Shown piece after piece: positions 1,940 to 62,600 of a DNA stretch of 64,000 bases (position 1 is its first letter; every line of letters starts with the position of its first letter). A program made the translations under genes and the position numbers. The DNA comes from Spinacia oleracea (Eukaryota; Streptophyta; Magnoliopsida; Caryophyllales; Amaranthaceae): assembly GCF_020520425.1 (NCBI RefSeq), contig NC_079492.1, positions 146,289,861 to 146,353,860 on the forward strand, in the 5' to 3' direction. The notes below the pieces were generated by a model. That model was not told where the DNA came from, made no database searches, and was given only the letters and a program-made list of their open reading frames with translations.

Positions 1940-3109
1940 ATGGAAGGAATAATGGTGGTTTTCGACTTTGACAAGACGATCGTTGAATGCGATAGCGATA
2001 ATTGGGTAGTTGATGAGTTGGGTTTTACAGAACGTTACAATCAGCTTCTTAATACCATGCCATGGAACTCTATGATGGTTTGTTTCTCTTATTTATACTC
2101 TGTTTTCATTCATCGTGTTGGTTCAATCGATTAATCTCTGTTTGTTTAAATGATGAAACAGGACACATTGATGAAAGAGATGCACACACAAGGAATAACA
2201 ACCGATGACATTGCTCGAGTTTTGAAAACAGTTCCGATTCATCCTCGCGTTATTCCGGCAATTAAAGCCGCCCATGCTGCTGGGTAATTAAAATTCCTCG
2301 ATCTTGTTTAAACATTAATTACTCCTTCTATCAGAATTAATTGTCCTGTTTATTGCATTATTTAACTAGTGGAGTAACTAGTAATATTATGAATAAAAGT
2401 TTATGATTATCTTATGCAGATGTGATTTGAGGATTGTAAGCGATGCAAATACGTTCTTCATCGAGACCGTACTTGATCATCTTGGATTAAAGAATTGTTT
2501 CACAGAGATTAACACAAACCCGGGTTATGTTGATGAACAAGGGAGATTAAGGATATTACCAATTCATGATTTCACCAAAACTCCTCATGAATGCAACAAC
2601 CCTTGCCCTCCAAACATGTGCAAGGTAATTATATTTTGAAATACTTTTAATATAATTAAATTGTGTAACGTAGATTAAATGTATAATAGGTTAGTAGTTC
2701 ATGTCTAATTACTTGTTATTATTCTATAAAATTGCAGGGTTTGGTGATAAAAAGGTTATTAAGTGAGCATAACACCAAGAAATTCATATACTTAGGAGAT
2801 GGAATTGGAGATTATTGCCCTTCATTAAGGCTAAGAGAAGGTGATCATGTTATGCCAAGAAAGAATTATCCAGTTTATGATATGATTTCAAGCAATCCAA
2901 TGCTTATTAGAGCCAAGATCCATGAATGGGCTGATGGTGAAGATCTGGAACGGATTCTACAGTCTCTAATCCAAGAAGATATCATCATCTCTTCTAATGG
3001 AGATAATGATAATAATGTTAGTCGATTGTTCGAGTTTGATTGCAAGCTTGGGGTTTTGCCTGTTATTTCCCATAGAGCTTTGCCTCAAACTGTATGTTGG
3101 CGTTTTTAG
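1940..3109 (+). CDS. HAD-family phosphatase, PS2/PEPC1 (PHOSPHO1-like) type
   Basis: Four exons: 1940-2077, 2162-2283, 2420-2624 and 2738-3109, all with GT/AG borders and continuous frame, giving 278 residues, close to the roughly 280-300 usual for the family. The HAD motif I nucleophile motif DFDKT is at residues 9-13 (MVVFDFDKTIVECDSDNW); motif II is in RIVSDANTFFIE; motif III/IV is in YLGDGIGDYCPS. A Cys-rich segment (NNPCPPNMCKG) is typical of the group. Arabidopsis relatives hydrolyse pyrophosphate (PPsPase1/PS2) or phosphoethanolamine and phosphocholine (PEPC1) and are induced by phosphate starvation; which substrate this copy prefers cannot be read from sequence. The cytosol is likely, as there is no signal peptide. 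A candidate PHR1 site lies 128 bp upstream of the ATG. Confidence 0.93.
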
Positions 3110-6869: not shown

Positions 6870-7463
6870 TACATAATATGATATGTAGAAAAAAATTAAT
6901 AATTAAATGTGGTCAGGGGAAAGAATTGATCCGGCTCCTACGCTTTGTGCTGATAAGGTCCAAACCACTAATTCGTTGCTAAAGGTTACATATTGATTCC
7001 TCGAGATAAGAAATATGCGATTTGGGCGAAAGATTTCACACTTGTGTGAACGCGTCACACCATCAAGTTAGATGGTGTTTATTAATACTTCGTATGAAAG
7101 AACGGAAGAAAATAATAATTTCAACAAGTAAAAAGTAACAAAGGTTTACTAAATATAGACAAAAGTGATTTACATGGAATTTTATTTTCTTACAAAAGAA
7201 TTCATGAGTCATGACAACTTCCAGTTTACAATTATAGATCATGCATAAATGGATAAAGTAATTAAATAATTTAATTTCTAACAAACCTGGCTAACAGATT
7301 GTAATACTCTATATGTATATATAAATAGTTATTTTGGGTGGAAGATATATCAAACCAGCTAAACTTGCATAATTATAGATAATCCTTAACTTATATAAGA
7401 TAGATACTTCGAAATATATCAATATACTTAGTAATCTTCGAAATATATTACTTTGTACTTAAA
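6870..7463 (+). promoter_or_regulatory. Upstream region of the double-knottin gene
   Basis: Non-coding. A TTATATAAG element at about 7390-7398 lies roughly 70 bp before the ATG at 7464 and is a plausible TATA box. Nothing else identified. Confidence 0.4.
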
Positions 7464-10400
7464 ATGGAAGGAAAATTTCTTTTCTACAAATCCACAGAAA
7501 AAGTAGCAGCCATTTTTTTCATACTAACTCTCGGTTAGTGATTACTCTTTATTTATAAACTAGATTAGATCCCGTGTACGCACGGATTTTGATATTTTTT
7601 TCACAAAATATTTAACTGAATATCTCCCAAAGTACTGCATAGTTATAACATTTTTAACATACTCGTTTAAATTTATTCATCTAATATGCATATTTAAAAT
7701 GAATATAACAATTTGACCAAAATATTGAGTGATATATTTTCCATTATTAATATAGCAATTTGACTAAAATATTACAAATTTAGAATAATTATTATTACGT
7801 TTTATCTATTATTTCCATAATTTATAAACTAAAATTTGTTTCCATACATAAATAGTTATAAAAAACGTGGAGAATAAAAATTAAATAAAACAGATACTCT
7901 TTAATTTCTTGGGAAAGTGGTTTTTGGCGGGAAAAAATCGCACCAAGAATTGACACGTGTCATTCCTGGTGTCTCTTTTAGTATATAGTAATAGATAAAT
8001 TGGTTGTAATTTTTTTTATAAACTCTAAAATTATTCATATAAGTAATAAAGATTAATGTTATATTTAAATCTTGACAGTGCAAATCATGACCGGTAAAGC
8101 CGTTGGTATGAGTTGTGGTATAGACGGAGACTCCTGCCAAGCCACAGATTATCATGTGTCGTGTTGTGTTGGATTTCACTGCCTCGGAAGTAAATGTATA
8201 AAAGGTCAGTGGAATTATTTTGTATTACATGGGTTCACTATCCCTTCATCACAATCGAAATCTACCCCTCAAATCTTTTCTCATCATAACAAAACAATCG
8301 TAAAGCAGATTTCTTCTGTTTGTTTCCTTATTGGAAAAACTATAGAAGAAAAGAAATGCAAGTGGAAAGTAGAGAATGGATAGAGGAGAGGAGAGAATAC
8401 GACAGAATGAGGAAGTACAAATACATATCAGATATGTATGGGGAAATACATATCAGAATAAAAGACAAAATAGGAAAAATAATAATTAAATGGTACTTTT
8501 TTAAACACAAATGGTACTTTTTTTTTTTTACAGAATGATACTTTTTTTACATGAATGGTACTTCCTTTTTTATCTTTTAGCTATTTGTCTTTTAGTTGAT
8601 ATGTGTGTTTCAGATATGCGAAAAAACGAACCCACGAGAAAATAGGTAAAAAAAAAAAAAAAAAAAGACATTCCTTCATTTAAAAAACTAAGGAAATTAT
8701 TTTACATTCTATGACAAAACAAATAAAGGAAAATGAGAAAATTAATTTGCGAACTTTTCCTTCAAAACAAATGAAGTCTTTACTCGTTTTTTTTAAAGGA
8801 AATTAAATTAATTGATCTAGGATGAAAAATAAAACTGGAGGATTTAGAGGGGCATAAAAATGAGGAATTGAGATTCTTGTTGAAGAGAGGAAAGAGATAC
8901 CGGGTGTGGAAAAGAAGAATATCGAGCATGTGAGAAATGTAGAAAGAATGTATATATAACAACGACTCGTATACATGTATTGGGAGAAAAAAACATCTCA
9001 TAATGGTATTTTCCGGTAAGTTTAAACTACAGATAATTGATTTTATTCTGATTAATTTGGCCGAAAAATGTTACTAATTGATAAAGTTTCACTCTGGCCC
9101 ATGAAACATCATATGTGACCCATATAAAAGAAAGGAACCTCGAAAGATTTAAGATCTAACCATGGAACATCACATGTGAGAGTCCCACGTTGGTAAACGA
9201 GGAGAGAAATAATCACTTTATTGATGGTGGGTGGTTTTAAGGTGGAACCTCGTACTGTTTTGTAAAGTGAACTCTCTCTTGATGGCGGGTGTGGCTCAGA
9301 CTCGCATTTAATACTAATGAGTCGAATTGCACAATTTAAAGGGTAATGTCTGAACTTGATATGGTTAGTGAGTTAAGCATACGTGTAAGGATCCACGTTT
9401 GAGTTTTTTCATCTTTAAGGACCTTATACAGGTTAGGTCCTTTAAGGACCTCGTTACACTTTTCTAGTGAGTTTACCACACCCTTAACTCAATGAATTTT
9501 GATATGGTTAATGAGTTAAGCATACGCTTAAGAATACACATTTGATTTTTTCATCTTTAAAGACATTATACGATTTTTTCTCCTTTAAGTACCTTGTTGC
9601 ACATTTCTAGTGAGTTAACCATATACCCAGATACCCTTAACTCAATCATTGGGCCTCGTTACACGGTAAAATATCGTGATAAAAAAATTATTATTATATA
9701 ATGATAAAATGTAACTATTTAAATAGAAAGTACTCCATTAACTATTTAGTTAGAAAGTGTTACTATTTAGTTGATTAACTAATTGTACCTAATAACTGTA
9801 GTTGATCACAGTGTGTTACTATTTGATTAGGTAGTACCTTTATTCGGTTTTAAATTGGTCTTGTAGTCTTGTACAATGTGTATGTTTTTGTAAAAAATAT
9901 TATGGACAAGGGAGTATGAATAAAGAATATACGATGTTATGATCTTTTTTTATCGATAATAATTTATTTGCGATTATCAATGAGATATTTGTTTTATTAT
10001 CAATATAACAATGACTTTTCCTTCTCCGTAAATTTTTATTAAATTAATATTCCTTAACTACATTACTATCACTAAATTATACGTAGCATTTACCAAAACC
10101 CGAATATCGTCATCATAAACTTTGCCCTTTAACCCTTTAGGGGATTGATTATAGTATTTTCAAAAAAATATATTTAAATACTCAATTCGCTTGATAATAA
10201 TATTTTGTGTGTATTGATAAACATGAAAAGTAAAAACTGAAACGTCATATAGAACGGAAAATGAGCGGATTTATGTTACTCCATTCGTTTTCTTTTAAAT
10301 GTATTACTTGTCTTGAGCCTTTTTTAAAATGCACCATTTTTACTTCATTTCTACGTTCTTTTTTTAATTGACAAGTTTTGACTTAATTTTAATACTATTC

Positions 10401-10800
10401 ACATTCAGTTTGACTATATTTGGTATTTATAAGAAAAAATACATTTATGGGGAACCATATTGGATTCATATAATTTTATATTTTGAAATCTCAAGTTTAT
10501 AATTTACTTATTGATCATTAAATATGTTGATGTTTACGTTGTGTATTGACAAACGTGATAAAAGCAACGTGTCAACTAAAAAGAAAAAAAGATGTATGCT
10601 TGTAATTTAAACTTTTTTTTTACCATATTTCACTATATTGATTTCATAATTATATATAACTAATGTTCATATCCAACGTTTTTTTGGTAGACAAGGGGAA
10701 CTCATGCGCAGAAGTCGGAGATCATTGTGGAATTTTAAGTAATCTATGTTGCGGATCACTTAGTTGTTCAGGCCACGTTTTTAAAGGCATTTGTAAATAG
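7464..10800 (+). CDS. Secreted precursor with two knottin-type (six-cysteine) domains
   Basis: Three exons, 7464-7533, 8079-8204 and 10691-10800, encode 101 residues. Exon 1 plus the start of exon 2 gives a hydrophobic signal peptide (VAAIFFILTLVQIM, residues 14-27). Exon 2 carries knottin 1 with Cys at 36, 43, 52, 53, 58 and 63; exon 3 carries knottin 2 with Cys at 71, 78, 85, 86, 91 and 100. The spacing C-x6-C-x6/8-CC-x4-C-x4/8-C resembles Mirabilis Mj-AMP and Phytolacca PAFP-S antimicrobial peptides (C-x6-C-x8-CC-x3-C-x10-C). Both introns are phase 1, so exon 2 is symmetric and may be skipped without a frameshift. Intron 1 holds a Helitron, intron 2 (2.5 kb) a MITE and a tandem duplication. 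A defence peptide role is inferred. Alternative: exon 3 belongs to a second gene whose first exon is lost; I found no signal-peptide exon for it. Confidence 0.7.
7560..7995 (-). mobile_element. Short non-autonomous Helitron
   Basis: Read on the minus strand it begins TCTATTACTATATACTAAAA and ends with the hairpin CCGTG-TACG-CACGG (7572-7585) followed about 10 bases later by CTAG, inserted between A and T as Helitrons do. 436 bp, without Rep/helicase coding. It lies wholly in intron 1 of the double-knottin gene. Confidence 0.75.
8409..8633 (-). mobile_element. MULE-type MITE (family also at 23692)
   Basis: Reverse-orientation relative of the element at 23692-23957: same ends (GAGGAAGTAC and CGAACCC) and subterminal palindrome ACATATCAGATATGT. 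Flanking 10-mers ACGACAGAAT and ACGAGAAAAT agree at 8 of 10 positions, consistent with an old 10-bp target duplication. It lies in intron 2 of the double-knottin gene. Confidence 0.65.
9358..9646. repeat. Tandem duplication, two units of about 143 bp
   Basis: Units start with GATATGGTTAGTGAGTTAAG (9358) and GATATGGTTAATGAGTTAAG (9501) and share TTTTTTCATCTTTAA and TTTCTAGTGAGTT in the same order. Diverged, non-coding, within intron 2 of the double-knottin gene. Confidence 0.7.
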
Positions 10801-17330: not shown

Positions 17331-20300
17331 TCAGACTGCATGAATTGGACTGCCACCAGAGTTCATATCCGGACTGGCAGGGGCCGGATTAGCATGAAAT
17401 GCAGATTGTCTAGATGTACCGTCGAGCAATTTCAGAGACAAACTTGATGGCTCACCACTACCAATAGTTTCTCCCAAGCTCAATTTCGACATACCAACAA
17501 GCTCATCGACATTAATTGGGTTCTTTGAATGTACTGCTGTAGGCTTAACCACCTCGTGCTTCTCTTTGGTTGGTTCGGGGTTACAGCTGGTCCAATACGG
17601 GACGGGATATGGGTAGAAAGGTGGCACATAAGTAGGATATACAACAGGGTAATAAGTTTGGGAAGTATCCGTTGGAATAGAGCTACTTTGGGTGGGTTCC
17701 ACGGGTTCTGGATTAGATAATACGGGTTCTGCCTCGTTGGAGTTTGAGTTGCTTGATGCCATTGACTCGCATTCTTCATCCAGGATAGGAGCAGGAGGCA
17801 ACGGGTTGTTGTTATTATTCTGTGTTTCAGTATCAGGTGCATGCTCAGGTAGGAAATCATGTGCTTCCATTGTTGTATCACCCTCCTGAAAAATCAACAG
17901 GTAAAATATGGTTACGTAAAAGTATGAAACAGTTGCGATAATTATGCTTCAACTTAATGTGTATGAGTCAAAAGATTGTAAATTTTGAAAGGGTAAATGA
18001 AAGATAGTCCTAAGAACAAACTTGAGGAAGGTTATGTAACAACTCACATAGCAATAAACAAGACATTCTGAATCAAAATATGAAGTTCAGAAGATTATCA
18101 TAAACTGGTCAAATCTTCATAAAAAGCAATCTTTTTCAGTATTACATGAGAAAGGACTAAAGGAGTTACATCTACCACCCATCAGAAACTGGCTACTACG
18201 CAAGTATTTACTATGCAATTGCAATCAAAGTAAATTATTATGAGGATGAAGATGAAAATGAAGAAAAAAGGTTATCACCTCATCAGCTACAATATCAAAC
18301 AAGCTAGAGCGTCTTTTCCTTCGAGAGACATTACACTGCCTGATGAAATATTTCTGAGCATGGCTAGCCACTTGGGTTGGTGTCCTTGATATCACATAAT
18401 TACGGGAAATTCCCCGCCAATCACCCTTCCCGAGTTTTTGCAGTCCAAGCAAAAACATCCTATGTTCCTCTTCTTTCCATGGAACACCTGTTGAAAGAAA
18501 GAGAATATCACTGTGAACAAATATACATTGGGGTAGACTTGGATGCCAGCTAAGTAGCCTATCCTATACAATCACATTCAGACCACAGGCAAGGAAAACA
18601 AAAGAAATTTCCTAGACCTATCAAGAAGTATAGAACACAAACCACAACAGAAGATGCTGCTGAATGCCACTATTATCAAGAGCTATGAACATTGAACACT
18701 TGGTCAAGATAGATTCGACAGTCAAATGCAGTGTAAGAAAGCAAAAGAAATTATAATCAGTAATTTATTCAAAACTTGTAATGGGAGCAAAATCGCAAAT
18801 GCAAGAGCACCTTTTTAGGTTCTGTTTAACTTGTTAAACTCAATTTCAGTGAAAACCAGCTTTGACTACAAGGATATAATCGCAATTTGCAAATATAAAT
18901 TTTGACAGGTAAAAATCAGTTTTATTAAAAATCAGTTCCCACTTCAAATAGCAACAATCAGAACAAAAATCAGTTAATGAAACATGGCCCTTACGGAAAA
19001 ATCCCATCATAGGAAGATACTGGGTATCAGTCAATCCTCAACATATAATGGAAAATAAAGTCCAAATAGAAAGGAATGAAGTGAGTAATCACTTCGAAAA
19101 GGAGGCACAAAGTATATCCACAAGAAGCATTGACATACAAATTCTAATATTTGACATGGTCAAAGGAAATGAAAATTAGCCACAAAAAGAAGCAACACGC
19201 AGTAAGTCGTATAGATGCTAAAATAAGTCAAGACATCCACAATCGTCAAACACTCCGCATGAGATATACTCTGTAATAGCATAAGACTCAAGTCAAAAGT
19301 AGAGGAACAACATCAAGTGACATAATAATCTCATATCAGGCTATCAGCATATGGTATAATGTGGCTAGCAAGAAGCAAACAGTAAAGTTCTGCTCTGCAT
19401 CATTAACCATCAACGAACTACAATCTCTAAAGTAACTAGCTTCATACTTCAATAAGCAGTTTCAATGAAGCACACTGACTATGAAGGTTTCGATGAGCAA
19501 ACACTGAGATTGGATGAAAATCATACGTGCTGACTTGAATACGACAAGTTTAATCACATTCCTTACGAAATTTAAACTATAATGAAGCACACCCCAACCG
19601 ATGTTTATAACCAGTTTACCAAATCACCTCTTCGCTATGACAAAATCTTCCCCAATATCAATCAAATCTTCAACAATGATTCATACACATGTCCACATCC
19701 AATCCAATCAAGATAATTCGAGCACGTTGAACAATTCTAGCTTGCTGTCTGAGTGTCTGCTAATAATAATCCGAAACATTCCCTATCCAACAATCAAGCC
19801 TAGTATTAACTTCAAGGGAATCGAGCACCGGGACCAATGCCCCAATTCACCAAAACTCCAAAAGAATTTCCAATTTCGTAAACCAAAATATCCAATTCAC
19901 ATGTCAATTCCACAAAACAAACCTGATCAAAACTTCCCCCAATTCAATCCTCACGCCATCTCAATCAACTATTTACAGGAGTTAAAATTCAAATTTTCCC
20001 AAGAATTGAATGTAAAATTGACAACAAATCCTCCATTTCCCGGGGGAAAAAGTGAAATACACAGGGAAATTAAAAATGAAAACTGTATCCCACCTAACTA
20101 ACACCAGCTGAATGAATCAATCCCTAAAAAATCACAGACAAAACAAACAACAATTTTCTATATTCAGCAAAACATAATATCCCTTATACTACTTTATACC
20201 TAAATCAATCTTAATTCCCACCCAAAAAAACCCAAACCACAAAAATTACAAAAATAAAATAAAATCGGACAAACCTTTTTTACGTTCCCGACTAGAAGAA

Positions 20301-20551
20301 GTACCAGCGACAAAATCCTCGGAAGCATACCCATCGGCAGACGGGTTCCCATGATCAGGAGTAAGATCACCGGCGGCGGGAGAAGTGTTCCCAACGACAC
20401 CGTTTTGATGAAGAAGAGAGAGATTACCCATACTGGCACTCTTACGGATTGACCCATCGGTTAATCGGACCCCAAAAAGCTTGACCCCGCGGTTCGGACA
20501 GGTTCGAGAGTTGTGCCCATTGTGGCTGCAATGGGAGCACCGTCTTGTCAT
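17331..20551 (-). CDS. KUA1: KUA1/MYBH-type single-repeat MYB repressor
   Basis: Three exons on the minus strand: 20275-20551, 18279-18487 and 17331-17885, giving 346 residues. The N-terminus has the CCHC zinc knuckle [17 protein letters not shown] (residues 3-19); exon 2 encodes the MYB repeat ([15 protein letters not shown] to [11 protein letters not shown]) with the diagnostic SHAQKYF motif and a basic RRKRRSS tract; exon 3 has a PTAVHSKxPINVDELxGMSKLSL motif and an EAR-like SLSLKLL near the C-terminus, followed by RQSAFHANP. Order and motifs match Arabidopsis KUA1/MYBH, a nuclear repressor of peroxidase genes in leaf cell expansion and senescence. The start is the only Met before the zinc knuckle. 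No breaks seen. Intron 1 is 1.8 kb. Confidence 0.9.
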
Positions 20552-21146
20552 GGTGGCTCGAACCCGGGTTTGGTGATCGGCCTATTGGGTTTGCTGCTGC
20601 GGATAAAAAAGGGGGAGAGATAAATAAATAAAAAAAAGAGTAAAACAAAAGAAGTTGGTTAGGTTAGAGAAATGGAGAAAGGAGACGCTATTAAAAGGAT
20701 GTTTTAATTGGGTGCGGTTCGGATAAATAGGACCCACCTTGGTGATTGTATCTCTGCCGTTGGATTGGAAATTTGTGTTTCTTTTTTTTTTAGATTGGAA
20801 ATATCAAAAATAGGAAACTTTTTTTTTAAAATAGGAAAGAAATAGGGTGTATGTATGTATTCATGTATTTGATGTGCCTTGTGGTTCACTCAAATGGGGG
20901 AAACAAAGATTTTTATTTTTTTTCCTTCCTGAGAAATATCTGGTTGATATTTTCAAGTGTTTTAATAATTATTTTGGTTTTTAGTTGTAAAATTATTAGC
21001 ATTTTGATTAATGGTTTATATTGACGTTCCGTTGACCATTAAAAATATCATACTCCGTTATATTAAAAGTATTTTGTATGATGAGTTATTATACGTTGGA
21101 GAATACAGAGATGAGTAATACTCCGTGGTAAGGAGTATGTTTATTA
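20552..21146 (-). promoter_or_regulatory. 5' flank of the KUA1-like gene
   Basis: Non-coding. It contains poly-A/T tracts and CTCTCCCCC-type pyrimidine-rich stretches on the minus strand just upstream of the ATG (about 20610-20640), likely the 5' UTR. No clear TATA box found. Confidence 0.4.
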
Positions 21147-36968: not shown

Positions 36969-39317
36969 AATTTTTTTTTTTTTTGGGTGCATTAGAAGAG
37001 GTGAGATCCTCAAAAGAAATACAAAATCAAGTAAAGAAAAGCAAAGCCAAAACTCTAAAGCTACAGCACGAACAGAAAACGAAAGGAAAAACAGAAACTA
37101 GAAACAGAACAGAGTTAGCCTCATGTTCAAGCAGCTGACGCCGGAACTTGACGAAGCAAACCCACCCCACTCCAGTCCTCCAATAAAATGTCTCGAAGAT
37201 CCGCCGATAGCAGAACCATCCTTGCATTCAAACCTACTCCATAGTTTGCGAGCCAGTCCGCGGCCCTGTTTGCTTCGCGGTAACAGTGATGAATTGTGAC
37301 TCTCCATCCCGGTTTCTGAAGCAGTTCCTTGCATTTTCGAATTATGTAAAAATACGGGGAAGTGCGACTTATTTCCCCCTCCAAAAGTTGGGCCACAACC
37401 AACGAATCAATAGTGAGCCTAACACTCCGATGACCTCCATTCCATTCCAGGCCGTTGCCAAGCCTCTCATCACAGCCAGTAGTTCAGCTTTGGTGGAGGA
37501 GTAGACACCACAGTTTGCTGCGAACATTTCGAACAACTCACCTCTGGGTCCTCTAATTATTCCACCCGCTCCTGCTTCACCGGGATTTCCTTTAGCAGCA
37601 CCGTCAGTATTCAAGCGTACCCACCCATCTTCGGGGTATTTCCAACTCACCATCGTACTGATCTTTACTCGGCCATTCGGATGAAGTAATTGGTCCTCCT
37701 TGGACATGACTCTCGTCACTTGTCCCACCCTCACCATTATAAAGCTTAGTTGGTATAACGGAATATCCACATTCCTCCCAAAACACCGGCCTATTGTTTC
37801 TCCACCTCCATAGCCACCAAATAGTCATTGCAAATACGATAGGTCATTTCTCGTCCCGTGTGTGTTGTGTCGAACTCAAGTTCGCTGCAACCCACCCCTT
37901 GAACTCTTTGTCGAACAATTCATGAGCAGTCATGCCTGAGAACTTCCACCACACCATCCTAGCTACAGGGCATTGGCGCAAGATGTGGTCTACGTTTTCC
38001 TCCACTTCTCCGCAAACCAAACAACGGGGATTATCCGTCATTTAATTTTCCTGATGAATCTGTTTGCGTTTGTCATTAATCGGTCATGCAGTGCCAGCCA
38101 TAGGAAAAAACGCACTTTTTGTGGGACTTTGAGTCTCCAAACTGTCTCCCAACATTCATTGGCACCCATCTGTGTCTCATTTCTTATCAGCTGAAGGGCA
38201 TATTTGATTGAAAAGCCACCTGAGTTCGTACCGTTCCAGAAGACCCTATCAACATCCTCTTCATCTTCTTGTAACTCGAAAGCTTCTATCTTCTTCAAAT
38301 CCACGGCTGGAAGGAAGTTGGCAAACTGCTCCCATCTCCATCCGTGCTCTCGGTCCCACAACTCTTCTACCGTTTGGTCCTGCATTTCCATGGGTACCTC
38401 ACTGATTGTCATGTCTATCAATGGGGTCTCCGACATCCACCTGTGATGCCAGAAAAAGGTGCGTTTCCCATTGCCAACCGCCATGCCTACTCCCCTCCTC
38501 AAAGTGTCTAGATTTTCTACCATGCCCTTCCAAGCATTGGAGGCATTTGCTTTGGGCACAAACATATCTAAGTCGCACCGTCCCGCACAATACTTATTCC
38601 TCACTACCCGCGACCACAGTGTTTCCGGTTCGGCTAAGAGTCTCCAACCCAACTTTGTGAGGAACGCTGCGTTCGCTTGTCTCATCGACCACACTCCTAA
38701 TCCCCCAATTGGCTTCGGTTTTGTAATGTTGTCCCATGACACCAGGTGTGTCTTCCTTTGCTCCTCCTTTCCGCTCCACAAAAATTTTCTTGAAACTCGG
38801 TCGATGCTGTCACACGTACTCCGCGGCAGCCTTGTTGTTTGCATAGCGTAGTACGACATTGAACTAATGGCTGATTGGACCAAGGTGGCCCTCCCTGCCA
38901 TTGAGATAAGCTTTGGTTTCCAACCACTGAGTTTCCCATTAATGCACATCACATTCAAGTACGGGGATAGAGGGTCTCCTTGACGAATTCCACGAGAAGG
39001 GGTGAACTTTTCAGTCGGTTCTCCATTCCACAGGATTTGGAGTGACGGCGAGGTAACACATTGCATGATTACTTCAATCATTACTTGAGGTAGGCGGATT
39101 TCCATCAGAGTTTCTTTGATAAAGCTCCACCGTAAGCGGTCATAAGCTTTTTCGAAGTCGATTTTAATAGCCATGGTCCCAACAACTCCCTGTTTTTTCC
39201 GCATAGTGTGGAGCATCTCCTGTACAATGATGATATTGTCCGTTATTTGCCTTCCCGGAACAAAACTACACTGGCTTGGTGAAATTAAAGCTGGGAGAAT
39301 GGGTTTCAAGCGGTTAA
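36969..39317 (-). mobile_element. 5'-truncated L1-type LINE lacking the RT catalytic segment
   Basis: Minus strand, with the poly(A) tail as a T run at 36969-36984. In order: RT fingers (NRLKPILPALISPSQCSFVPGRQ, MAIKIDFEKAYDRL, RGIRQGDPLSPYL, about 39320-38960); then directly LSGWKPKLISMAGRATLVQS and the connection region; zf-RVT (RLMTNANR near 38060; RCLVCGEVEENVDHILRQCP, about 38030); RNase H (WVRLNTDGAAKGNP near 37610, STKAELLAVMRGL, then YREANRAADWLANYG at about 37240). The segment that should carry the catalytic (Y/F)ADD motif is absent near 38958, yet the frame continues for 436 codons. At least two further breaks lie near 38040 and 37430. No ORF1 or endonuclease remains. Confidence 0.88.
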
Positions 39318-39878
39318 CAATGATAAAATAAAAAAAATGATAAAACATATTGATTTATAACTCTTTTAAAATGAATTAAAATCCTCTAACCAACCAACAA
39401 TACTGTGTATCACTTTTTTCTATTGGATGAAAATAATGTAATTTCAAATATAGAAATAAAAATAGTTCATCAATTACGAATATCAACCGATAATAAATTT
39501 AGTGAAAAATATATAAGTAGTGGACAGACGATTCAAAACCACAACTAGCATAAATCTAGAGCATATTACATGCACGCGGGTGCACGGTGCACCCTCTCTC
39601 ATTTTCTCCTTACCTATAAGGAGAAAATATGGTAGAGACCACAAACGTGCATAAAAATATCTTTGGTTGTACCTAATAATTTCCAGCATAAATCAGGTGC
39701 GCGAAAGAGTTGAATTGCCGAAATAATTAAGTGTGAATACGCCGGCGGAAAGCAAAAGCAAAGGATTAGATGTGGATGTTAATTACTACTTAATTAGTGG
39801 CAAAAGTTGACATGTTATTATATACGTACATATATATCCAAAATTAGCACCGTCAAGAGCTCTTGTTTTAATTTGTAA
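39318..39878. other. Intergenic stretch
   Basis: AT-rich, between the LINE and the next Helitron. No gene or terminal repeat recognised. Confidence 0.4.
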
Positions 39879-43217: not shown

Positions 43218-43333
43218 GCCGAAGCCCAATTCCTAAATTTCCCACAACAATCTCTCTAATCTCTAATCACAAAGCATAGTAACCACTTAAGAAAATATAC
43301 TACTAGAGTATTTATTTTGTTCATCATTTTAAG

Positions 43334-43822
43334 ATGGCATCAAGAGCTTTGTCATCAATTGCTATCTTCCTATGCCTCAACCTAGTGTTTTTCACTATGG
43401 TAAGTTCCCATTCTGTCCCCTGTCCACCACCACCATCATGTAATAGATGTACTCCACAACCACCTAGCCACGGTGGCCAAGGAGGGAACCCACCACCAGG
43501 GTCGCCTAGCCACGGTGGACAAGGAGGGAACCCACCAATGTCTCCAACACCACCATCAAAAGGAAACTGCCCCATTGATATTCTAAAGTTAGGGGTGTGT
43601 GCCAATGTGTTAGGTGGCTTGCTCGGAGTTGTTATTGGAAGTCCACCACAGAGTCAATGTTGCACTCTTCTTCAAGGGTTGGCTGATCTTGATGCAGCAG
43701 TTTGTCTTTGCACCGCTATTAAAGCTAATATCTTAGGGATTAATCTCAATGTCCCTATCTCTTTGACTTTGTTGCTCAATCAGTGTGGCAAAACTAATAC
43801 CTCCGGCTTCAAATGCACTTAA
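43334..43822 (+). CDS. DC2.15-type proline-rich 8-cysteine (hybrid LTP-like) protein
   Basis: Single-exon gene of 162 residues. Signal peptide at 1-25 ([21 protein letters not shown]); a Pro/Gly linker at about 27-77 with a 14-residue duplication ([11 protein letters not shown] at DNA 43463 and 43505); then the 8-cysteine motif from about 79 to 161: [33 protein letters not shown] and the final FKC. This is the layout of 14-kDa DC2.15/EARLI1-like cell-wall proteins. Arabidopsis relatives (EARLI1, AZI1) act in cold response and systemic defence priming; the role here is inferred only at family level. The start is the first Met, in good context after a TATA box. Intact. Confidence 0.95.
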
Positions 43823-46249: not shown

Positions 46250-47164
46250 GAAAGCTCAATGGACCGACACTCGGGCATTTGTCAGTAAGTACTCTACTGC
46301 TTCTAATTCGTCTTTGAATCCTGCAAACCATTTAATTCCAATTGTTTGGAGGTTTTCTAACAAACAAATAGGAACACTGTCTGGTGGAGCCCACGTGCAT
46401 GGTTCACGATCTTTAAGGCTGATATTCATCCTTAACTGGAAGTTTAAGAATTAGCTTCAGTTCACCATCAGAGTCTTTAAAGAACAATATGGAGCTTTTC
46501 GATTTTACACCTAAGAGCTGTGGAAATCCACGCATTCATACGCGATAAGCCTATATTATCTGGACAGGAAAGCTTAATTGAAAGTAGGTTTGTGGATTTA
46601 CAATTGTCAAGTACATGTTCCACAAGGTTCGCAAATCTAACAGGATCAGATTTACTACCCTGTAAGCTAACACAAATTCTTATTTATAAGGGTTGTACAA
46701 TAAATATCGTACACCAGAGTAAAAGTTAACTCAAAATGCATAAAAGTTAAGCTTATATAGGTAAAAGTTATCTATTTTTTAGTGATAAATTTTTTCATTT
46801 TAATAAAACTTATTTCTTCAAAATCACTAATAATGTATAAAATTAATCATTGAACTCTTTAAAATGTTTATCTATCAAATTTTTTTACTAATATAAAAGT
46901 TAATCAAAACTAAGTTAAAGTTACAAAAAAATGGGTAAAAGTTATCTTGGTGTACAATAAATTTGTTGTACACCTTGTGCACGCAAGACCTTTTGGTAAG
47001 CTAATACTACTAATGCCTTTCCAAAGGTATTTCCACTTCGAAGACAAAATGCTAGTTCTAATTGCCTCTTCTGTTGGAAGGAAAGAAATTATGTGTGCAA
47101 TTATATGGTTAGGTAAATTACTAATGTTGTCCAATTGTTCTAATTGCTTCTCCCTCTTCATCTC
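46250..47164 (-). pseudogene. F-box/FBD protein pseudogene split by a transposon
   Basis: Minus strand from the Met codon at 47162-47164: an F-box (ISNLPNHIIAHIISFLPTEE... SSKWKYLWKGISSISL) reaching about 47000; then the 326-bp palindrome-capped element; then an LRR-like segment (SDPVRFANLVEHVLDNCKST, WISTALRCKIEKLHI, 46661-46480) ending in TAA at 46477-46479; then an FBD-like tail (APPDSVPICLLENLQTIGIK, KDELEAVEYLLTNA, about 46390-46265). The host frame reads on directly across the insertion site once the 8-bp duplication is counted once, so the insertion hit an open frame or a young pseudogene. Much of the LRR region is deleted relative to the roughly 400-residue family norm. Family members are SCF substrate receptors. 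Confidence 0.75.
46670..46995 (+). mobile_element. Palindrome-capped non-autonomous element, copy 3, inside the F-box pseudogene
   Basis: Same ends as at 15255 and 16516, with perfect 8-bp duplication GTAAGCTA (46662-46669 and 46996-47003). Palindromes TTGTACAATAAATATCGTAC (left, decayed) and GTGTACAATAAATTTGTTGTACAC (right). Confidence 0.8.
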
Positions 47165-48370
47165 ACCTTCCTGCTTAAAAGACTGCTTATATATCAATAT
47201 TACTAATCGTTGATTAAATGATAAAATGCTCTGTAATGCATCAACATGTTGAAATCGAGTTAAAATGCTCACAAATTAGAGCACAACAAGCATACATCTT
47301 TTAATCCAATTATTGGCGGAATATAAATCAGATAAATTTACAAGAAATTGAACTCATGATTAAATTCCAACAATATGTTCACAACAAATTGGCTATAATA
47401 ACAAAAATATCGGCTATCGGAAATCTATTACGGTTCTTGAAAGTAGGAGCAACTGAGTCTAATAATTTCAAAAATGGGGGATAATTTACAGATTAAATTG
47501 GGCCAAAAACATTGCTGGAAATTTCTCCATTTTTAGTGAACAATTTGCACAAAATTCAGCCGTAAAAGAGAAACAAAGTAAAATGAACACGTTAATTGAA
47601 CTGAAAAGAAACAAATTGAAGACTTAATTCGATTAATTGTTCCCCAAATCAAAACCCTAACTAAAACTTAATGCGCATGCATCAAACAAGTAAATAAGTA
47701 CTCCAGACTAATAAAATCAAGAACACAATTGGAATAATAATGAACAGAAAGCAGAATTGGAGATGCGAACCTGAGTAATTGATGAACTTTGAGGGTGATA
47801 GCTGATGCGAACCTCGGTCAGTCAAACTTGTTTATTGGAATAAAGTCAAACCCGAACGATTTCATGGATTTGGCTCGTAAAAAAATATTTGCACTTTTAA
47901 ACTATTTGGTTTTTAAATACACTTTGTACTTCGTATCTTTTATAAGAAATAAAATATTTAATAATAGAAAAAATAAATTAGCCTTAGCTTTCTATTGGAA
48001 AAGAGCTTGAGTTGAATTAAATGGATTTAGATATTTGGAAAATGAAAAATAATACCCCGGAATATATTTTACGCATTGTTTATTTTTATCAAGCTCAAAA
48101 TCAATGCAAATGGCTTGTTCGTGAATAAAGGCCGAACAAAACCACTCTTAATGAGCTAAGCTCGAAGTTCTTTATCAAGCTTAGTTCAAACAAACTAAAA
48201 CTCAGCTCGACTTGACTCATTTGCAGCTCCAATTATAGATACAAGGCGGGGATTAGGCAGACATGTGGATCCGTAGATATGGGCCCAAAGACTAGTTACT
48301 AGTTAGGAATCAAAACCATCTCTTCCACAATTTTGCAGAACTGGTCTCAAGTGTAACGCGCTCATATATA
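47165..48370. other. Intergenic, upstream of the F-box pseudogene
   Basis: AT-rich. A GAGCTAAGCTCGAAG / CTCAGCTCGACTTG tract at 48090-48240 is a degenerate repeat common in plant intergenic DNA. No gene seen. Confidence 0.4.
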
Positions 48371-59675: not shown

Positions 59676-62600
59676 TTACCTCCGCGATAGTTTACCCCTT
59701 ATAGAGCTTCTTTTTACTGGTGTCGGATGAGAAGAAATAACCCTCAACTTTTCTGGACTTGGCTGCTCTTCGTCATCACTAGTTTCATCGGACCGCCATC
59801 TTTGAGCACCACTAATGTTGAAATCCGTGGCCGGAGAACTGTATGCTTCTCGGCTATAACGAGATAGAACATATGTTAAAAGTTATGGATAAATATGATA
59901 TCATCCTTTATTTCAGGGAAGGGGGAATAAAAGGGTACAAAATCTGAAGTCTGTTACCTCCAAGAAATATCCATTGCATCTCCTAAAGAAGCTGTAATTC
60001 CAGGTCTATCTAGGTCTCTTGGTGAGAACAACCTCTTACCAGAAGCAGTTTTGTACCTTTCTTCAGGTGAGTCGTCAAGCAAGCCACGATTACTGCTAGG
60101 CGTCCTTGTAGGTTTTGCCATAACCCTACGAGAATGTGGTGGACTAACCTTTGGAAGAGGTCCAAACAGACCATTTTGCTCTACTTGGGGAGAGACCTCG
60201 TCAAGTTCAGCATCTCGAAGTTCACCAAGAAAAAACCTTGATGAAGCTCTACTAACATCTTTAACGACCGAAGCATTCATGGAATGAAACCCAGAGGTTA
60301 AGACATCATCCAATTTGGAATTTTTTACCATGCTGAATGGAGGCTTCGATGATCTCCCAGTGTTTGTGAAGATATTTCCATGAGAAGTAGATGGAGAAGA
60401 AATATTAACAAATTCAGGTTCAGCGTCTCCAACATGCCCAGCTGAATTCAAATTTGGATAATTAGATGGCTTGAAAGAAGTCTCATGATCCATCTGAAGA
60501 ATAAGGGAAGAACACAAGGGTGAGGATGCTGAAGGTATAGAAGCAGCTTCTTTTCGTTCCCTAACTACATCTGCTTCTCTTTGATAACCAGCCTTGTCTA
60601 CACCTAAAACCATATCCTCCGGCAATTTTCCAGCCTTCAGTTGCTGCTGCTCGACTTCTGGAAGCAACTCCACAGCTTTATTCTGCTCAACAGAACACCA
60701 CCAACTCAGTCACATTTGGTTGTTTGGTGTAAATTATTGGACAAAGCCAAAACAGGTGTACATGCAAGGAAAACAAAATCAAGAGTGGAGAGAGAGAGAG
60801 AAAGAGTAAACCTAAACAAAATCTAATGCTCTACAAGAGGTCGGTTCACAGTGGTGGCCTTGATGGAGGTGCCAAGAAAATAACTATGAAAATGTTAGCT
60901 TAAAAACCCGGAAGATGTTTGTGGGGAATTCTGAGAACAAATTTGCCTATGCTCTGAAGTCAGCAAAGCCTTATTCTTTGATTAGAATTTGAGACATAGC
61001 TATTCAGCATTTAGCATCAAGCTGCTCAAAACACTACACGGCTATATGCTTTATACAATTAAGTGTGCCTTCACATGAATACGTGATATTGCAAACAACA
61101 CAAAAAGGAATACTTCTTATTGTATGAAAACAAACGCCAACAAGAAAATGATCTTGCAACAAATTAGAACTCATTTCCATAAATTGCCAACAAAGCTCCT
61201 GAGAAAATCTTCCCTATCATTCACATTTTGACAGAAGAATGTGCAAATCCAGCAAACAGACTGCAGAACCAAGATTTATTCCACAACTAACCTCGAATTG
61301 CGGACTCATTCTAAGAAATAAGAATATGAGGCTCATTGAGAGAACTCAAGTACTCCGTAACTAAATAAGTCAAGGGTAACGTAAATCTGGATGGAAAGAA
61401 AAACATTATTCTACAACTACCAGATTATTGATAAAAAAAATAAAGATAAGAGGTACTTACAACCAATCCTGATCTCCAGTCAGCTGATGATCTCATTCTG
61501 TACAAACCCTCTTCATCGACATTATTATTTGATATGAAATGCTCCTCCACTGTCTGTAGCTCCCTATCTGTATGATATGCATCAACATACCGGTGGCGCT
61601 GAAGTATGTAAACAACCATATAATTGCATTAGTTTCCAGCTAAACACAATTGTAGATTTAATTCGAAAAATATGCAACTCCGCCACAGTTAAACTTCTTT
61701 AACAGAGTATAATAACATTCCCCAAAAACTAGGGCCATGTCCTTTTAACTTCCAGCCTGTATAGTATTCCTCTTCAGAGACAAACAGAATAGCAAACCAC
61801 AAAGAAACGACAAAGCATCAAATACTTGATCTTTCAGAAAGTGGAAAGTCGTATATGAGATGACCCATGAGTCCATGAGTAGGGCAAGTAACTGGAATTG
61901 CAAATTCTATAGATGTACAGGAGATAGAGAGGGAAGAGAGGGAGTAGTCACCTGGAGATAATACACAACAAGAAGACTTCCAGCAGTTGAACGGGGATTA
62001 TCTGTAGCACAATCAAAGAGGCATTTATGAATATGCCTCTCTTCATCAATACTCCAGGGAAGCTCTATGAAACGGTCTATAAAGTTCCTTCGGACACACA
62101 GATAGCAAATCTCGGTGATCAAAACAAGCACCCAATCTGTCCAACTACTGAGTTCGTCTTCAGAATCATCCAAAGCATCTACTGGAAATTTATGATTCAA
62201 TTGCTTCTCTTTGACTTTCATGCAAAGCATCCTCTGGTACATGAATGCTTCGGTTAAAAGGCCACATTCCACTCTGACCCTAACTGCTGTGACTGCCTCA
62301 CTCAAGGACACCTCAGCTCCACCATCACGGCCACACCACCGCATAAACATAAGAGCTGAATCAGGGCTATTCCTTTCTAACAGAACTTTTGCTATCTTAG
62401 GATGAGATTCTGGACTTGCTATCTCTGGCAGAAGGTGGCAAGCTTTCTACACAACAATTTTTTTGGAGCAATTGTTTGTTAGGAAGTGCAACAGATGATA
62501 TAAGAACGGCAATTTGGAACTTAAAATGCTAGCCTCCAATAATGCATCAATAACTTTCACATAACAAAATAGACAAAAGCGGAAGAGATAACCTCCGGTA

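What the first reader, a model, noticed from the sequence alone, without database searches (positions are those of the whole stretch)
7464..10800. One gene appears to encode two knottin domains on symmetric phase-1 exons
A signal-peptide exon is followed by two six-cysteine exons whose splice phases all match, giving a 101-residue precursor with tandem knottins. Plant knottin antimicrobial peptides of the Mj-AMP/PAFP-S type are normally single-domain. Because exon 2 is phase 1 on both sides, skipping it would leave signal plus knottin 2, so one locus could make one- or two-domain products. The two domains are clearly diverged, so the duplication is not recent.
Basis: partly seen in the sequence, partly recalled or inferred. 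Interest (0 to 1): 0.72.

Follow-up and report, generated by a model that had tools for sequence, protein, structure and literature searches.

The report
Spinach gene for two joined knottins
A plant gene, almost certainly from spinach, appears to encode one small secreted protein made of two cysteine-knot domains, one per exon; other genes of the same genome repeat the layout, so it is a real design, though tandem knottin precursors were already known from cacti and other plants.

Summary
Confirmed: exons 7464-7533, 8079-8204 and 10691-10800 join at GT-AG sites, phases 1 and 1, into a 101-residue precursor with two six-cysteine domains. Simulated windows give about 0.02 such domains per 64 kb; this one has two. 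The genome (probably spinach) holds at least ten more genes that can be modelled with the same three-exon, two-knottin layout, and an intronless gene with signal and both knottins in one open frame. Wider relatives carry one, two or three knottins in one frame. Same-position domains resemble each other more than the two domains of a gene do (rank 1 of 128 label swaps, 8 of 12 genes), so the duplication is old. The Mj-AMP/PAFP-S label fails (no PF11410 match; charges -2 and -1). A knottin-2 profile finds the plant knottins wrightide and alstotide. Exon-2 skipping is possible but unsupported; single-knottin genes exist separately. Tandem six-cysteine precursors are published (bleogens, PMC5743680). 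There are no transcript or peptide data. Most likely it is a two-headed secreted defence protein.

The parts
7392..7398 (+). TATA-like box, 72 bases upstream of the ATG
   Evidence: a TATATAA lies 44-76 bases upstream of the ATG in all five C1 paralogues, but the region is AT-rich, so weak evidence
7464..7533 (+). exon 1: start codon and most of the signal peptide (23 codons plus 1 base), donor phase 1
7534..8078 (+). intron 1, 545 bases
8079..8204 (+). exon 2: end of the signal region (VQIMTGKAVG) and knottin 1, phase 1 on both sides
8114..8197 (+). knottin 1, first to last Cys (loops 6-8-0-4-4)
   Evidence: AlphaFold2 model of 33 residues without alignment, pLDDT 79.7, pTM 0.46; three best Foldseek rows are spider-venom ICK-type peptides and PcFK1, TMq 0.60-0.72, but E >= 0.39
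8205..10690 (+). intron 2, 2486 bases
8407..8633 (+). dispersed genomic repeat inside intron 2 (85-91% identical copies on contigs C1 to C6), part of the reason for the long intron
10691..10800 (+). exon 3: most of the linker, knottin 2 and stop codon
10705..10794 (+). knottin 2, first to last Cys (loops 6-6-0-4-8)
   Evidence: a profile of 11 such domains matches wrightide R1 (E 2.8e-5) and alstotide S1 (E 5.2e-4) in the PDB; AlphaFold2 model poor (pLDDT 58.0)

Best explanation
A functional nuclear gene for a small secreted protein: signal peptide, knottin 1, a seven-residue linker (IKDKGNS), knottin 2. Shown from sequence: exons with GT-AG borders and matching phases, two complete six-Cys domains, and the same layout across a gene family. 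Inferred: the exons are joined in the mRNA, each domain folds as an inhibitor cystine knot (Cys I-IV, II-V, III-VI), the protein passes through the ER to apoplast or vacuole, and it acts as a two-headed defence protein. Knottin 2 probably keeps a conserved inhibitory role of the plant alpha-amylase-inhibitor knottin kind; knottin 1 would be the less conserved head that adds a second target or avidity. The two heads most likely stay joined, because linkers in the family are 2 to 10 residues long and share no evident processing site. The layout most likely arose by duplication of the phase-1 knottin exon of a signal-exon plus knottin-exon gene, a form that still exists on C2 at about 12.4 Mb.
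For: Gene model and phases. 11 of 11 intron-bearing gene models (window included) have phases 1 and 1 and two six-Cys domains, five of them in a cluster on C1; see the full report for how far this was built in. The intronless gene C2b carries signal and both domains in one 100-residue ORF. Both domains have six Cys in 12 of 12 proteins, while mean column identity is 53%. Mean column identity is 54% in knottin 2 and 45% in knottin 1, 11 rows each. dN/dS over the whole coding sequence is below 1 in 8 of 9 pairs (0.26-0.68). Label-swap rank 1 of 128. Knottin 2 profile hits wrightide R1 and alstotide S1. Knottin 1 model pLDDT 79.7. Linkers: IKDKGNS, YTLPPGVSSW and close variants, VSD, KPYPNPS/KPYPSPS, EPDPNSS, DRDFTQT, NT; two residues in each of the 9 intronless proteins given. 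Single-knottin gene with the same phase-1 first intron.
Against: No transcript or peptide data. The knottin 2 model is poor (pLDDT 58.0, pTM 0.24) and its Foldseek search gave nothing useful. Knottin 1's Foldseek matches are weak and also include growth-factor-binding and R-spondin domains. Both profiles also match spider and cone-snail peptides, the knottin 1 profile best of all, so the inhibitor resemblance may reflect the shared scaffold only. The cleavage score of the window's full signal is low (1.59; usual threshold 3.5 recalled). The window linker holds K, D and N residues that plant proteases could cut. One pair (C1a/C1b) has dN/dS 1.49. The tree of 43 domains does not make D1 and D2 two clean clades (30 columns).
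Confidence: 0.6

Rival explanations
1. Cleaved polyprotein: the two-knottin precursor is cut in the linker, giving two separate single-knottin defence peptides, as with other plant multi-unit precursors.
For: A paper on 'cleavable hololectins' of quinoa, same plant family, reports tandem hevein-like peptide precursors (PMC8512870; listing and start of abstract only). TIPTOP precursors of Momordica hold 5 to 8 core peptides (PMC11253845, table passage). The window's linker IKDKGNS has K, D and N.
Against: No shared processing motif; linkers of 2-3 residues in C2a, C2b and the 9 intronless proteins examined leave little room for a protease; several linkers contain proline.
Confidence: 0.3
2. Alternative splicing switch: exon 2 is skipped in some tissues, giving signal plus knottin 2 alone from the same locus.
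For: Exon 2 is phase 1 on both sides in 11 of 11 models, so skipping keeps the frame. A recalled signal-cleavage matrix scores the best site of the skipped form higher than that of the full form in 9 of 11 genes (window 3.04 against 1.59), lower in 2 (C5a, C3).
Against: Symmetric phase is what exon duplication leaves behind whether or not skipping occurs. In some skipped forms the best site lies at or behind the first Cys of the knottin (C2a, C3). Single-knottin genes exist separately. No transcript data.
Confidence: 0.1
3. Two adjacent genes or a dead exon: exons 2 and 3 belong to different transcripts.
For: The second intron is long (2486 bases) and holds a dispersed repeat.
Against: Ten paralogue models repeat the arrangement, two with second introns of 159 and 274 bases; one paralogue is a single ORF. 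No family-like signal exon was found in intron 2. Exon 2's frame runs on to 8383 without a stop, so it is not a natural last exon.
Confidence: 0.03
4. Acidic first knottin as a folded pro-domain: knottin 1 neutralises or chaperones a more basic knottin 2 until cleavage.
For: Net K+R-D-E charge of knottin 2 exceeds that of knottin 1 in 10 of 12 genes, one tie, one reversed.
Against: In the window the difference is one unit (-2 against -1); the 12 genes are not independent (five in one cluster, one near-identical pair); among the 9 intronless proteins the second domain is higher in 4, equal in 1, lower in 4.
Confidence: 0.07

Closest known systems
Bleogen type IIb precursors (Pereskia bleo; tandem forms also reported in Lophophora, Portulaca and Talinum), PMC5743680, abstract and passages
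   Same: Caryophyllales; one signal peptide followed by two six-Cys CXnCXnCCXnCXnC domains
   Different: Type IIb has a pro-domain between signal and first mature domain; in the window gene only 2-7 residues lie between the three best-scored cleavage sites and the first Cys. Exon layout is not in the passages I saw of that paper.
TIPTOP precursors of Momordica cochinchinensis (PMC11253845, table passage)
   Same: Several knottin or cyclotide cores in one plant precursor
   Different: Listed there with 5, 5 and 8 cores in 281-431 residues; cucurbit, longer; not compared here by sequence
Wrightide R1 and alstotide S1, plant knottins (PDB 2mau/4bfh, 2mm6); alpha-amylase inhibitors (stated in the PDB name for alstotide, recalled for wrightide)
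   Same: Six-Cys knottin scaffold; the knottin 2 profile finds them at E 2.8e-5 and 5.2e-4
   Different: Single-knottin chains of 30 residues in the PDB; activity of the spinach domain untested
Mj-AMP1/2 and PAFP-S (Pfam PF11410)
   Same: Six-Cys motif; Caryophyllales (recalled)
   Different: Single mature domain, rich in Lys/Arg (PMC5743680 passages); no PF11410 match for the window gene or for the 12-protein set, and none over cut-off in the genome
SCREPs / bivalent ICK toxins of spiders (DkTx, Hi1a/Hc1a): PMC6262176 (abstract, outline, word search) and PMC13172734 (passages)
   Same: Two ICK domains joined by a short linker in one secreted chain
   Different: Animal venom; in the Hc1a family both domains lie in one exon and are ascribed to intra-exon duplication, whereas here each domain has its own phase-1 exon. 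The word 'plant' was not found in the main text of the SCREP paper.
Quinoa cleavable hololectins (PMC8512870; listing and start of abstract only)
   Same: Same plant family as spinach, tandem Cys-rich peptide precursor
   Different: Hevein-like chitin-binding units

Membership tests
Six-cysteine knottin / ICK peptide | Six Cys in C-C-CC-C-C order in each domain | tested here: met
   both domains, 12 of 12 genes (knottin 1 of C2a has a first loop of 4 instead of 6)
Six-cysteine knottin / ICK peptide | Cystine-knot fold | tested here: inconclusive
   Knottin 1 model pLDDT 79.7, best Foldseek rows ICK-type with TMq 0.60-0.72 but E >= 0.39; knottin 2 model unusable; sequence profiles of both hit solved knottins
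Six-cysteine knottin / ICK peptide | Disulfides I-IV, II-V, III-VI | not testable with these tools
   needs peptide
Mj-AMP/PAFP-S (PF11410) | Match to the Pfam model | tested here: not met
   PF11410 absent from the matches of the window protein, its domains and the 12-protein set at E <= 10; one genome match (C4, 20.5 bits against a cut-off of 22), elsewhere
Mj-AMP/PAFP-S (PF11410) | One mature domain, cationic | tested here: not met
   two domains; charges -2 and -1
Bleogen type IIb tandem precursor | Signal followed by two six-Cys domains in one chain | tested here: met
Bleogen type IIb tandem precursor | Pro-domain between signal peptide and first mature domain | tested here: not met
   window gene: 2-7 residues between the three best-scored cleavage sites (all scores under 3.5) and the first Cys, 12 residues from the start of exon 2
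Plant alpha-amylase-inhibitor knottins | Inhibits alpha-amylase | not testable with these tools
   sequence similarity only

The most novel reading that the evidence does not exclude
Spinach runs a combinatorial two-headed knottin system: an exon-per-knottin gene family, built by duplication of phase-1 knottin exons, whose joined heads bind two different targets at once, with the first head under diversifying selection and intronless copies extending the series to three heads. This would be a plant counterpart of bivalent spider ICK toxins, reached by the exon route that PMC13172734 did not find for the spider Hc1a toxins.
Probability: 0.2. Interest if true: 0.7.

Novelty: new variant of a known kind. 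Interest (0 to 1): 0.42.

Why it matters
One genome shows one-, two- and three-knottin genes, with and without introns, so the birth of multi-headed knottins can be traced at exon level. If the heads stay joined, plants would have stable natural two-headed inhibitors, useful as crop-protection or binding scaffolds and as a test of whether bivalency is selected outside venoms.

Tried and rejected
Mj-AMP/PAFP-S membership: rejected on the PF11410 results. Two genes or dead exon: rejected on paralogues and the intronless gene. I expected that skipping exon 2 would destroy the signal cleavage site; the weight matrix did not support this (skipped form higher in 9 of 11 genes), so I dropped the argument. 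The matrix was recalled from memory; its 15 column sums were all 161, as they should be, and zero counts were replaced by values of my own choice. Structure of knottin 2 without an alignment failed. A structure of the joined protein was not sought, because a spliced protein is not a contiguous translation of the window. NCBIfam gave nothing of use. The plasmid collection gave nothing for exon 2. A phrase search for tandem or double knottins listed 7 papers, none on plants by title. A sign of positive selection on knottin 1 was seen in one pair only (C1a/C1b exon 2: 15.5 nonsynonymous, 0.5 synonymous differences); counts too small, no test made. In the same call the signal part of C3/C2c (2.63) and exon 3 of C1a/C1b (1.05) also exceeded 1.

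Full report
The window is G000:C6:146289861-146353860 of an 894-Mb assembly in 242 contigs. I take the species as spinach, as an inference.

Exons 7464-7533, 8079-8204 and 10691-10800 have GT-AG borders and phases 1 and 1 and give 101 residues. The six-Cys pattern occurs exactly twice in the six frames of the window, both on the plus strand; simulated windows gave 0.02 (order 1) and 0.013 (order 3) matches on average, and none of 300 gave two. A scan of intron 2 for hydrophobic ORFs with a phase-1 GT found four overlapping ones, starting at 8511 and 8535, which do not resemble the family's signal exon.

The genome speaks for one gene. Searching with the window protein gave 19 matches, on C1, C2, C3, C5 and C6 (done with a version carrying two extra glycines). 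From fetched DNA I built 11 intron-bearing gene models, the window's included: five in a cluster on C1 at 124.73-124.77 Mb, one at C2:13.26 Mb, two at C5:12.26 Mb, one at C3:16.12 Mb, one at C2:113.37 Mb and the window gene. All 11 have GT-AG borders, phases 1 and 1, a signal exon, a knottin-1 exon and a knottin-2 exon; first introns range from 145 to 1170 bases, second introns from 159 to 2486. How far this was built in: exon-1 donors of the paralogues were sought by scripts that looked only for phase-1 GT sites, and the borders of exons 2 and 3 were read by eye from the DNA; the independent support is that the borders fall at matching places and that the joined products align end to end. Signal exons for the C5, C3 and C2:113 Mb genes were picked among several candidates by their shared pattern. 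A twelfth gene, C2:91.9987 Mb (C2b), is one 100-residue ORF without introns that holds signal, knottin 1 and knottin 2. Counts are lower bounds by the tool's own warning.

A search with the intronless protein gave 30 rows; 20 regions covering part of these were fetched. By six-Cys pattern, 9 of 20 hold a two-knottin frame, 3 a three-knottin frame (near copies on C1), 5 only single-knottin frames and 3 none. One of the single ones (L024) matched with stop codons inside and may be a broken copy. A two-exon single-knottin gene with the same phase-1 first intron lies at C2:12.399 Mb, with kin at C2:12.186, 12.224 and 12.372 Mb seen only as search rows with stops inside the matched stretch. So one, two and three knottins coexist, and single-knottin products need no exon skipping.

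Age and constraint. In the alignment of 12 proteins 11 of the 12 Cys columns are invariant; the last Cys of knottin 1 is present in all 12 but slips in the alignment because its loop varies. Leaving Cys out, 8 representatives of the 12 genes (C1b, C1d, C1e and C5b left out as near copies) give mean identity 0.243 between first domains, 0.286 between second domains, 0.198 between first and second domains of different genes and 0.196 within a gene; the true labels rank first of 128 swaps. With all 12 the values are 0.301, 0.316, 0.192 and 0.190. A maximum-likelihood tree of 43 domains is poorly resolved (30 columns) and does not give two clean clades, but labels are clustered (8 changes against 14.8 shuffled). 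Pairwise dN/dS (own Nei-Gojobori script) over the whole coding sequence was below 1 in 8 of 9 pairs; the exception, C1a/C1b (1.49), is driven by exon 2 with 15.5 nonsynonymous and 0.5 synonymous differences. These are small counts.

What the domains are. The window protein has no Pfam match at E <= 10; its knottin 2 alone gives only Toxin_12 at E 0.058, under the cut-off. Across the 12 proteins the matches are to toxin, metallothionein and similar Cys-rich models, best E 0.0024. A profile of 11 second domains finds wrightide R1 (E 2.8e-5), Xt3a, alstotide S1 (E 5.2e-4) and spider and cone-snail peptides. A profile of 11 first domains finds mainly spider peptides (best E 1.6e-4) and, weakly, bidentatide of Achyranthes (E 0.099). 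AlphaFold2 without alignment gave pLDDT 79.7 for knottin 1 and 58.0 for knottin 2. Knottin 1's 43 structure rows start with three ICK-type peptides (TMq 0.60-0.72, E 0.39-0.87) but also include growth-factor-binding and R-spondin domains, and none reaches E 0.001; knottin 2's search is uninformative. PF11410 does not match, and the domain charges are -2 and -1, so a cationic membrane-active peptide is unlikely.

Mechanism. Linkers in the 12 genes are 2 to 10 residues, several with proline, with no shared cleavage site; the 9 intronless proteins given to (of 13 multi-knottin frames) have two-residue linkers. I therefore favour a joined two-headed secreted inhibitor over a cleaved precursor, about two to one. 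Exon-2 skipping would keep the frame, and the recalled signal-cleavage matrix does not speak against it (skipped form higher in 9 of 11 genes), but nothing speaks for it except symmetric phases, which exon duplication leaves anyway. Intron 2 carries a 227-base dispersed repeat at 8407-8633.

Known work. Bleogen type IIb precursors have a signal, a pro-domain and two six-Cys domains, and similar tandem precursors are reported for Cactaceae, Portulacaceae and Talinaceae (PMC5743680, outline, abstract and passages). The same passages say that Mj-AMP1, Mj-AMP2 and PAFP-S have a signal and one mature domain. TIPTOP precursors with several knottin or cyclotide cores appear in a review table (PMC11253845, passages). 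Bivalent spider ICK toxins are treated in PMC6262176 (abstract and outline; word search) and PMC13172734 (passages), where the Hc1a domains share one exon and an exon-shuffling origin is thought unlikely. My 10 searches of the paper library listed no paper on tandem knottins of spinach by title or abstract start; several lists were capped (for example 12 of 185 and 10 of 52), and papers outside that library were not searched. The finding is a real, conserved variant of a known kind.

Noticed in passing
L026 (G000:C1:11.988 Mb), L027, L028: Three near-identical frames with three knottins in tandem after one signal peptide; domains 2 and 3 look alike, as after a later duplication.
   Followed up: partly
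L033 3280-3690, L034 3100-3675 (G000:C1:129.12-129.13 Mb): Two-knottin frames with about 40 residues (counted by eye) between signal and first knottin, which resembles the pro-domain arrangement of bleogen type IIb.
   Followed up: no
L043 1131-1298, L044 1668-1835 (G000:C6:145.94 Mb), about 0.35 Mb from the window gene: Two knottin-2-like terminal exons with two extra Cys at the C-terminus (eight Cys); upstream exons not located.
   Followed up: no
window 8407-8633: Dispersed repeat in intron 2; 40 other places scored, 85-91% identical, of 1452 candidates.
   Followed up: partly
window 37130-39354, minus strand: Non-LTR retrotransposon remains: reverse transcriptase, zf-RVT and RNase-H-like domains.
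   Followed up: no
window 18228-18563 and 20249-20581, minus strand: Myb DNA-binding domain, and upstream on the same strand an ORF with a [15 protein letters not shown] zinc-knuckle-like stretch without Pfam match; probably one MYB-related transcription factor gene (recalled motif).
   Followed up: no
window 43307-43819, plus strand: Hydrophobic seed protein / lipid-transfer type gene with proline-rich start (PF14547).
   Followed up: no
window 61910-62446, minus strand: ELYS domain (PF13934), probably a HOS1-like gene (name recalled).
   Followed up: no
window 46913-47275, minus strand; 2690-3106, plus strand: F-box domain and a putative phosphatase exon.
   Followed up: no
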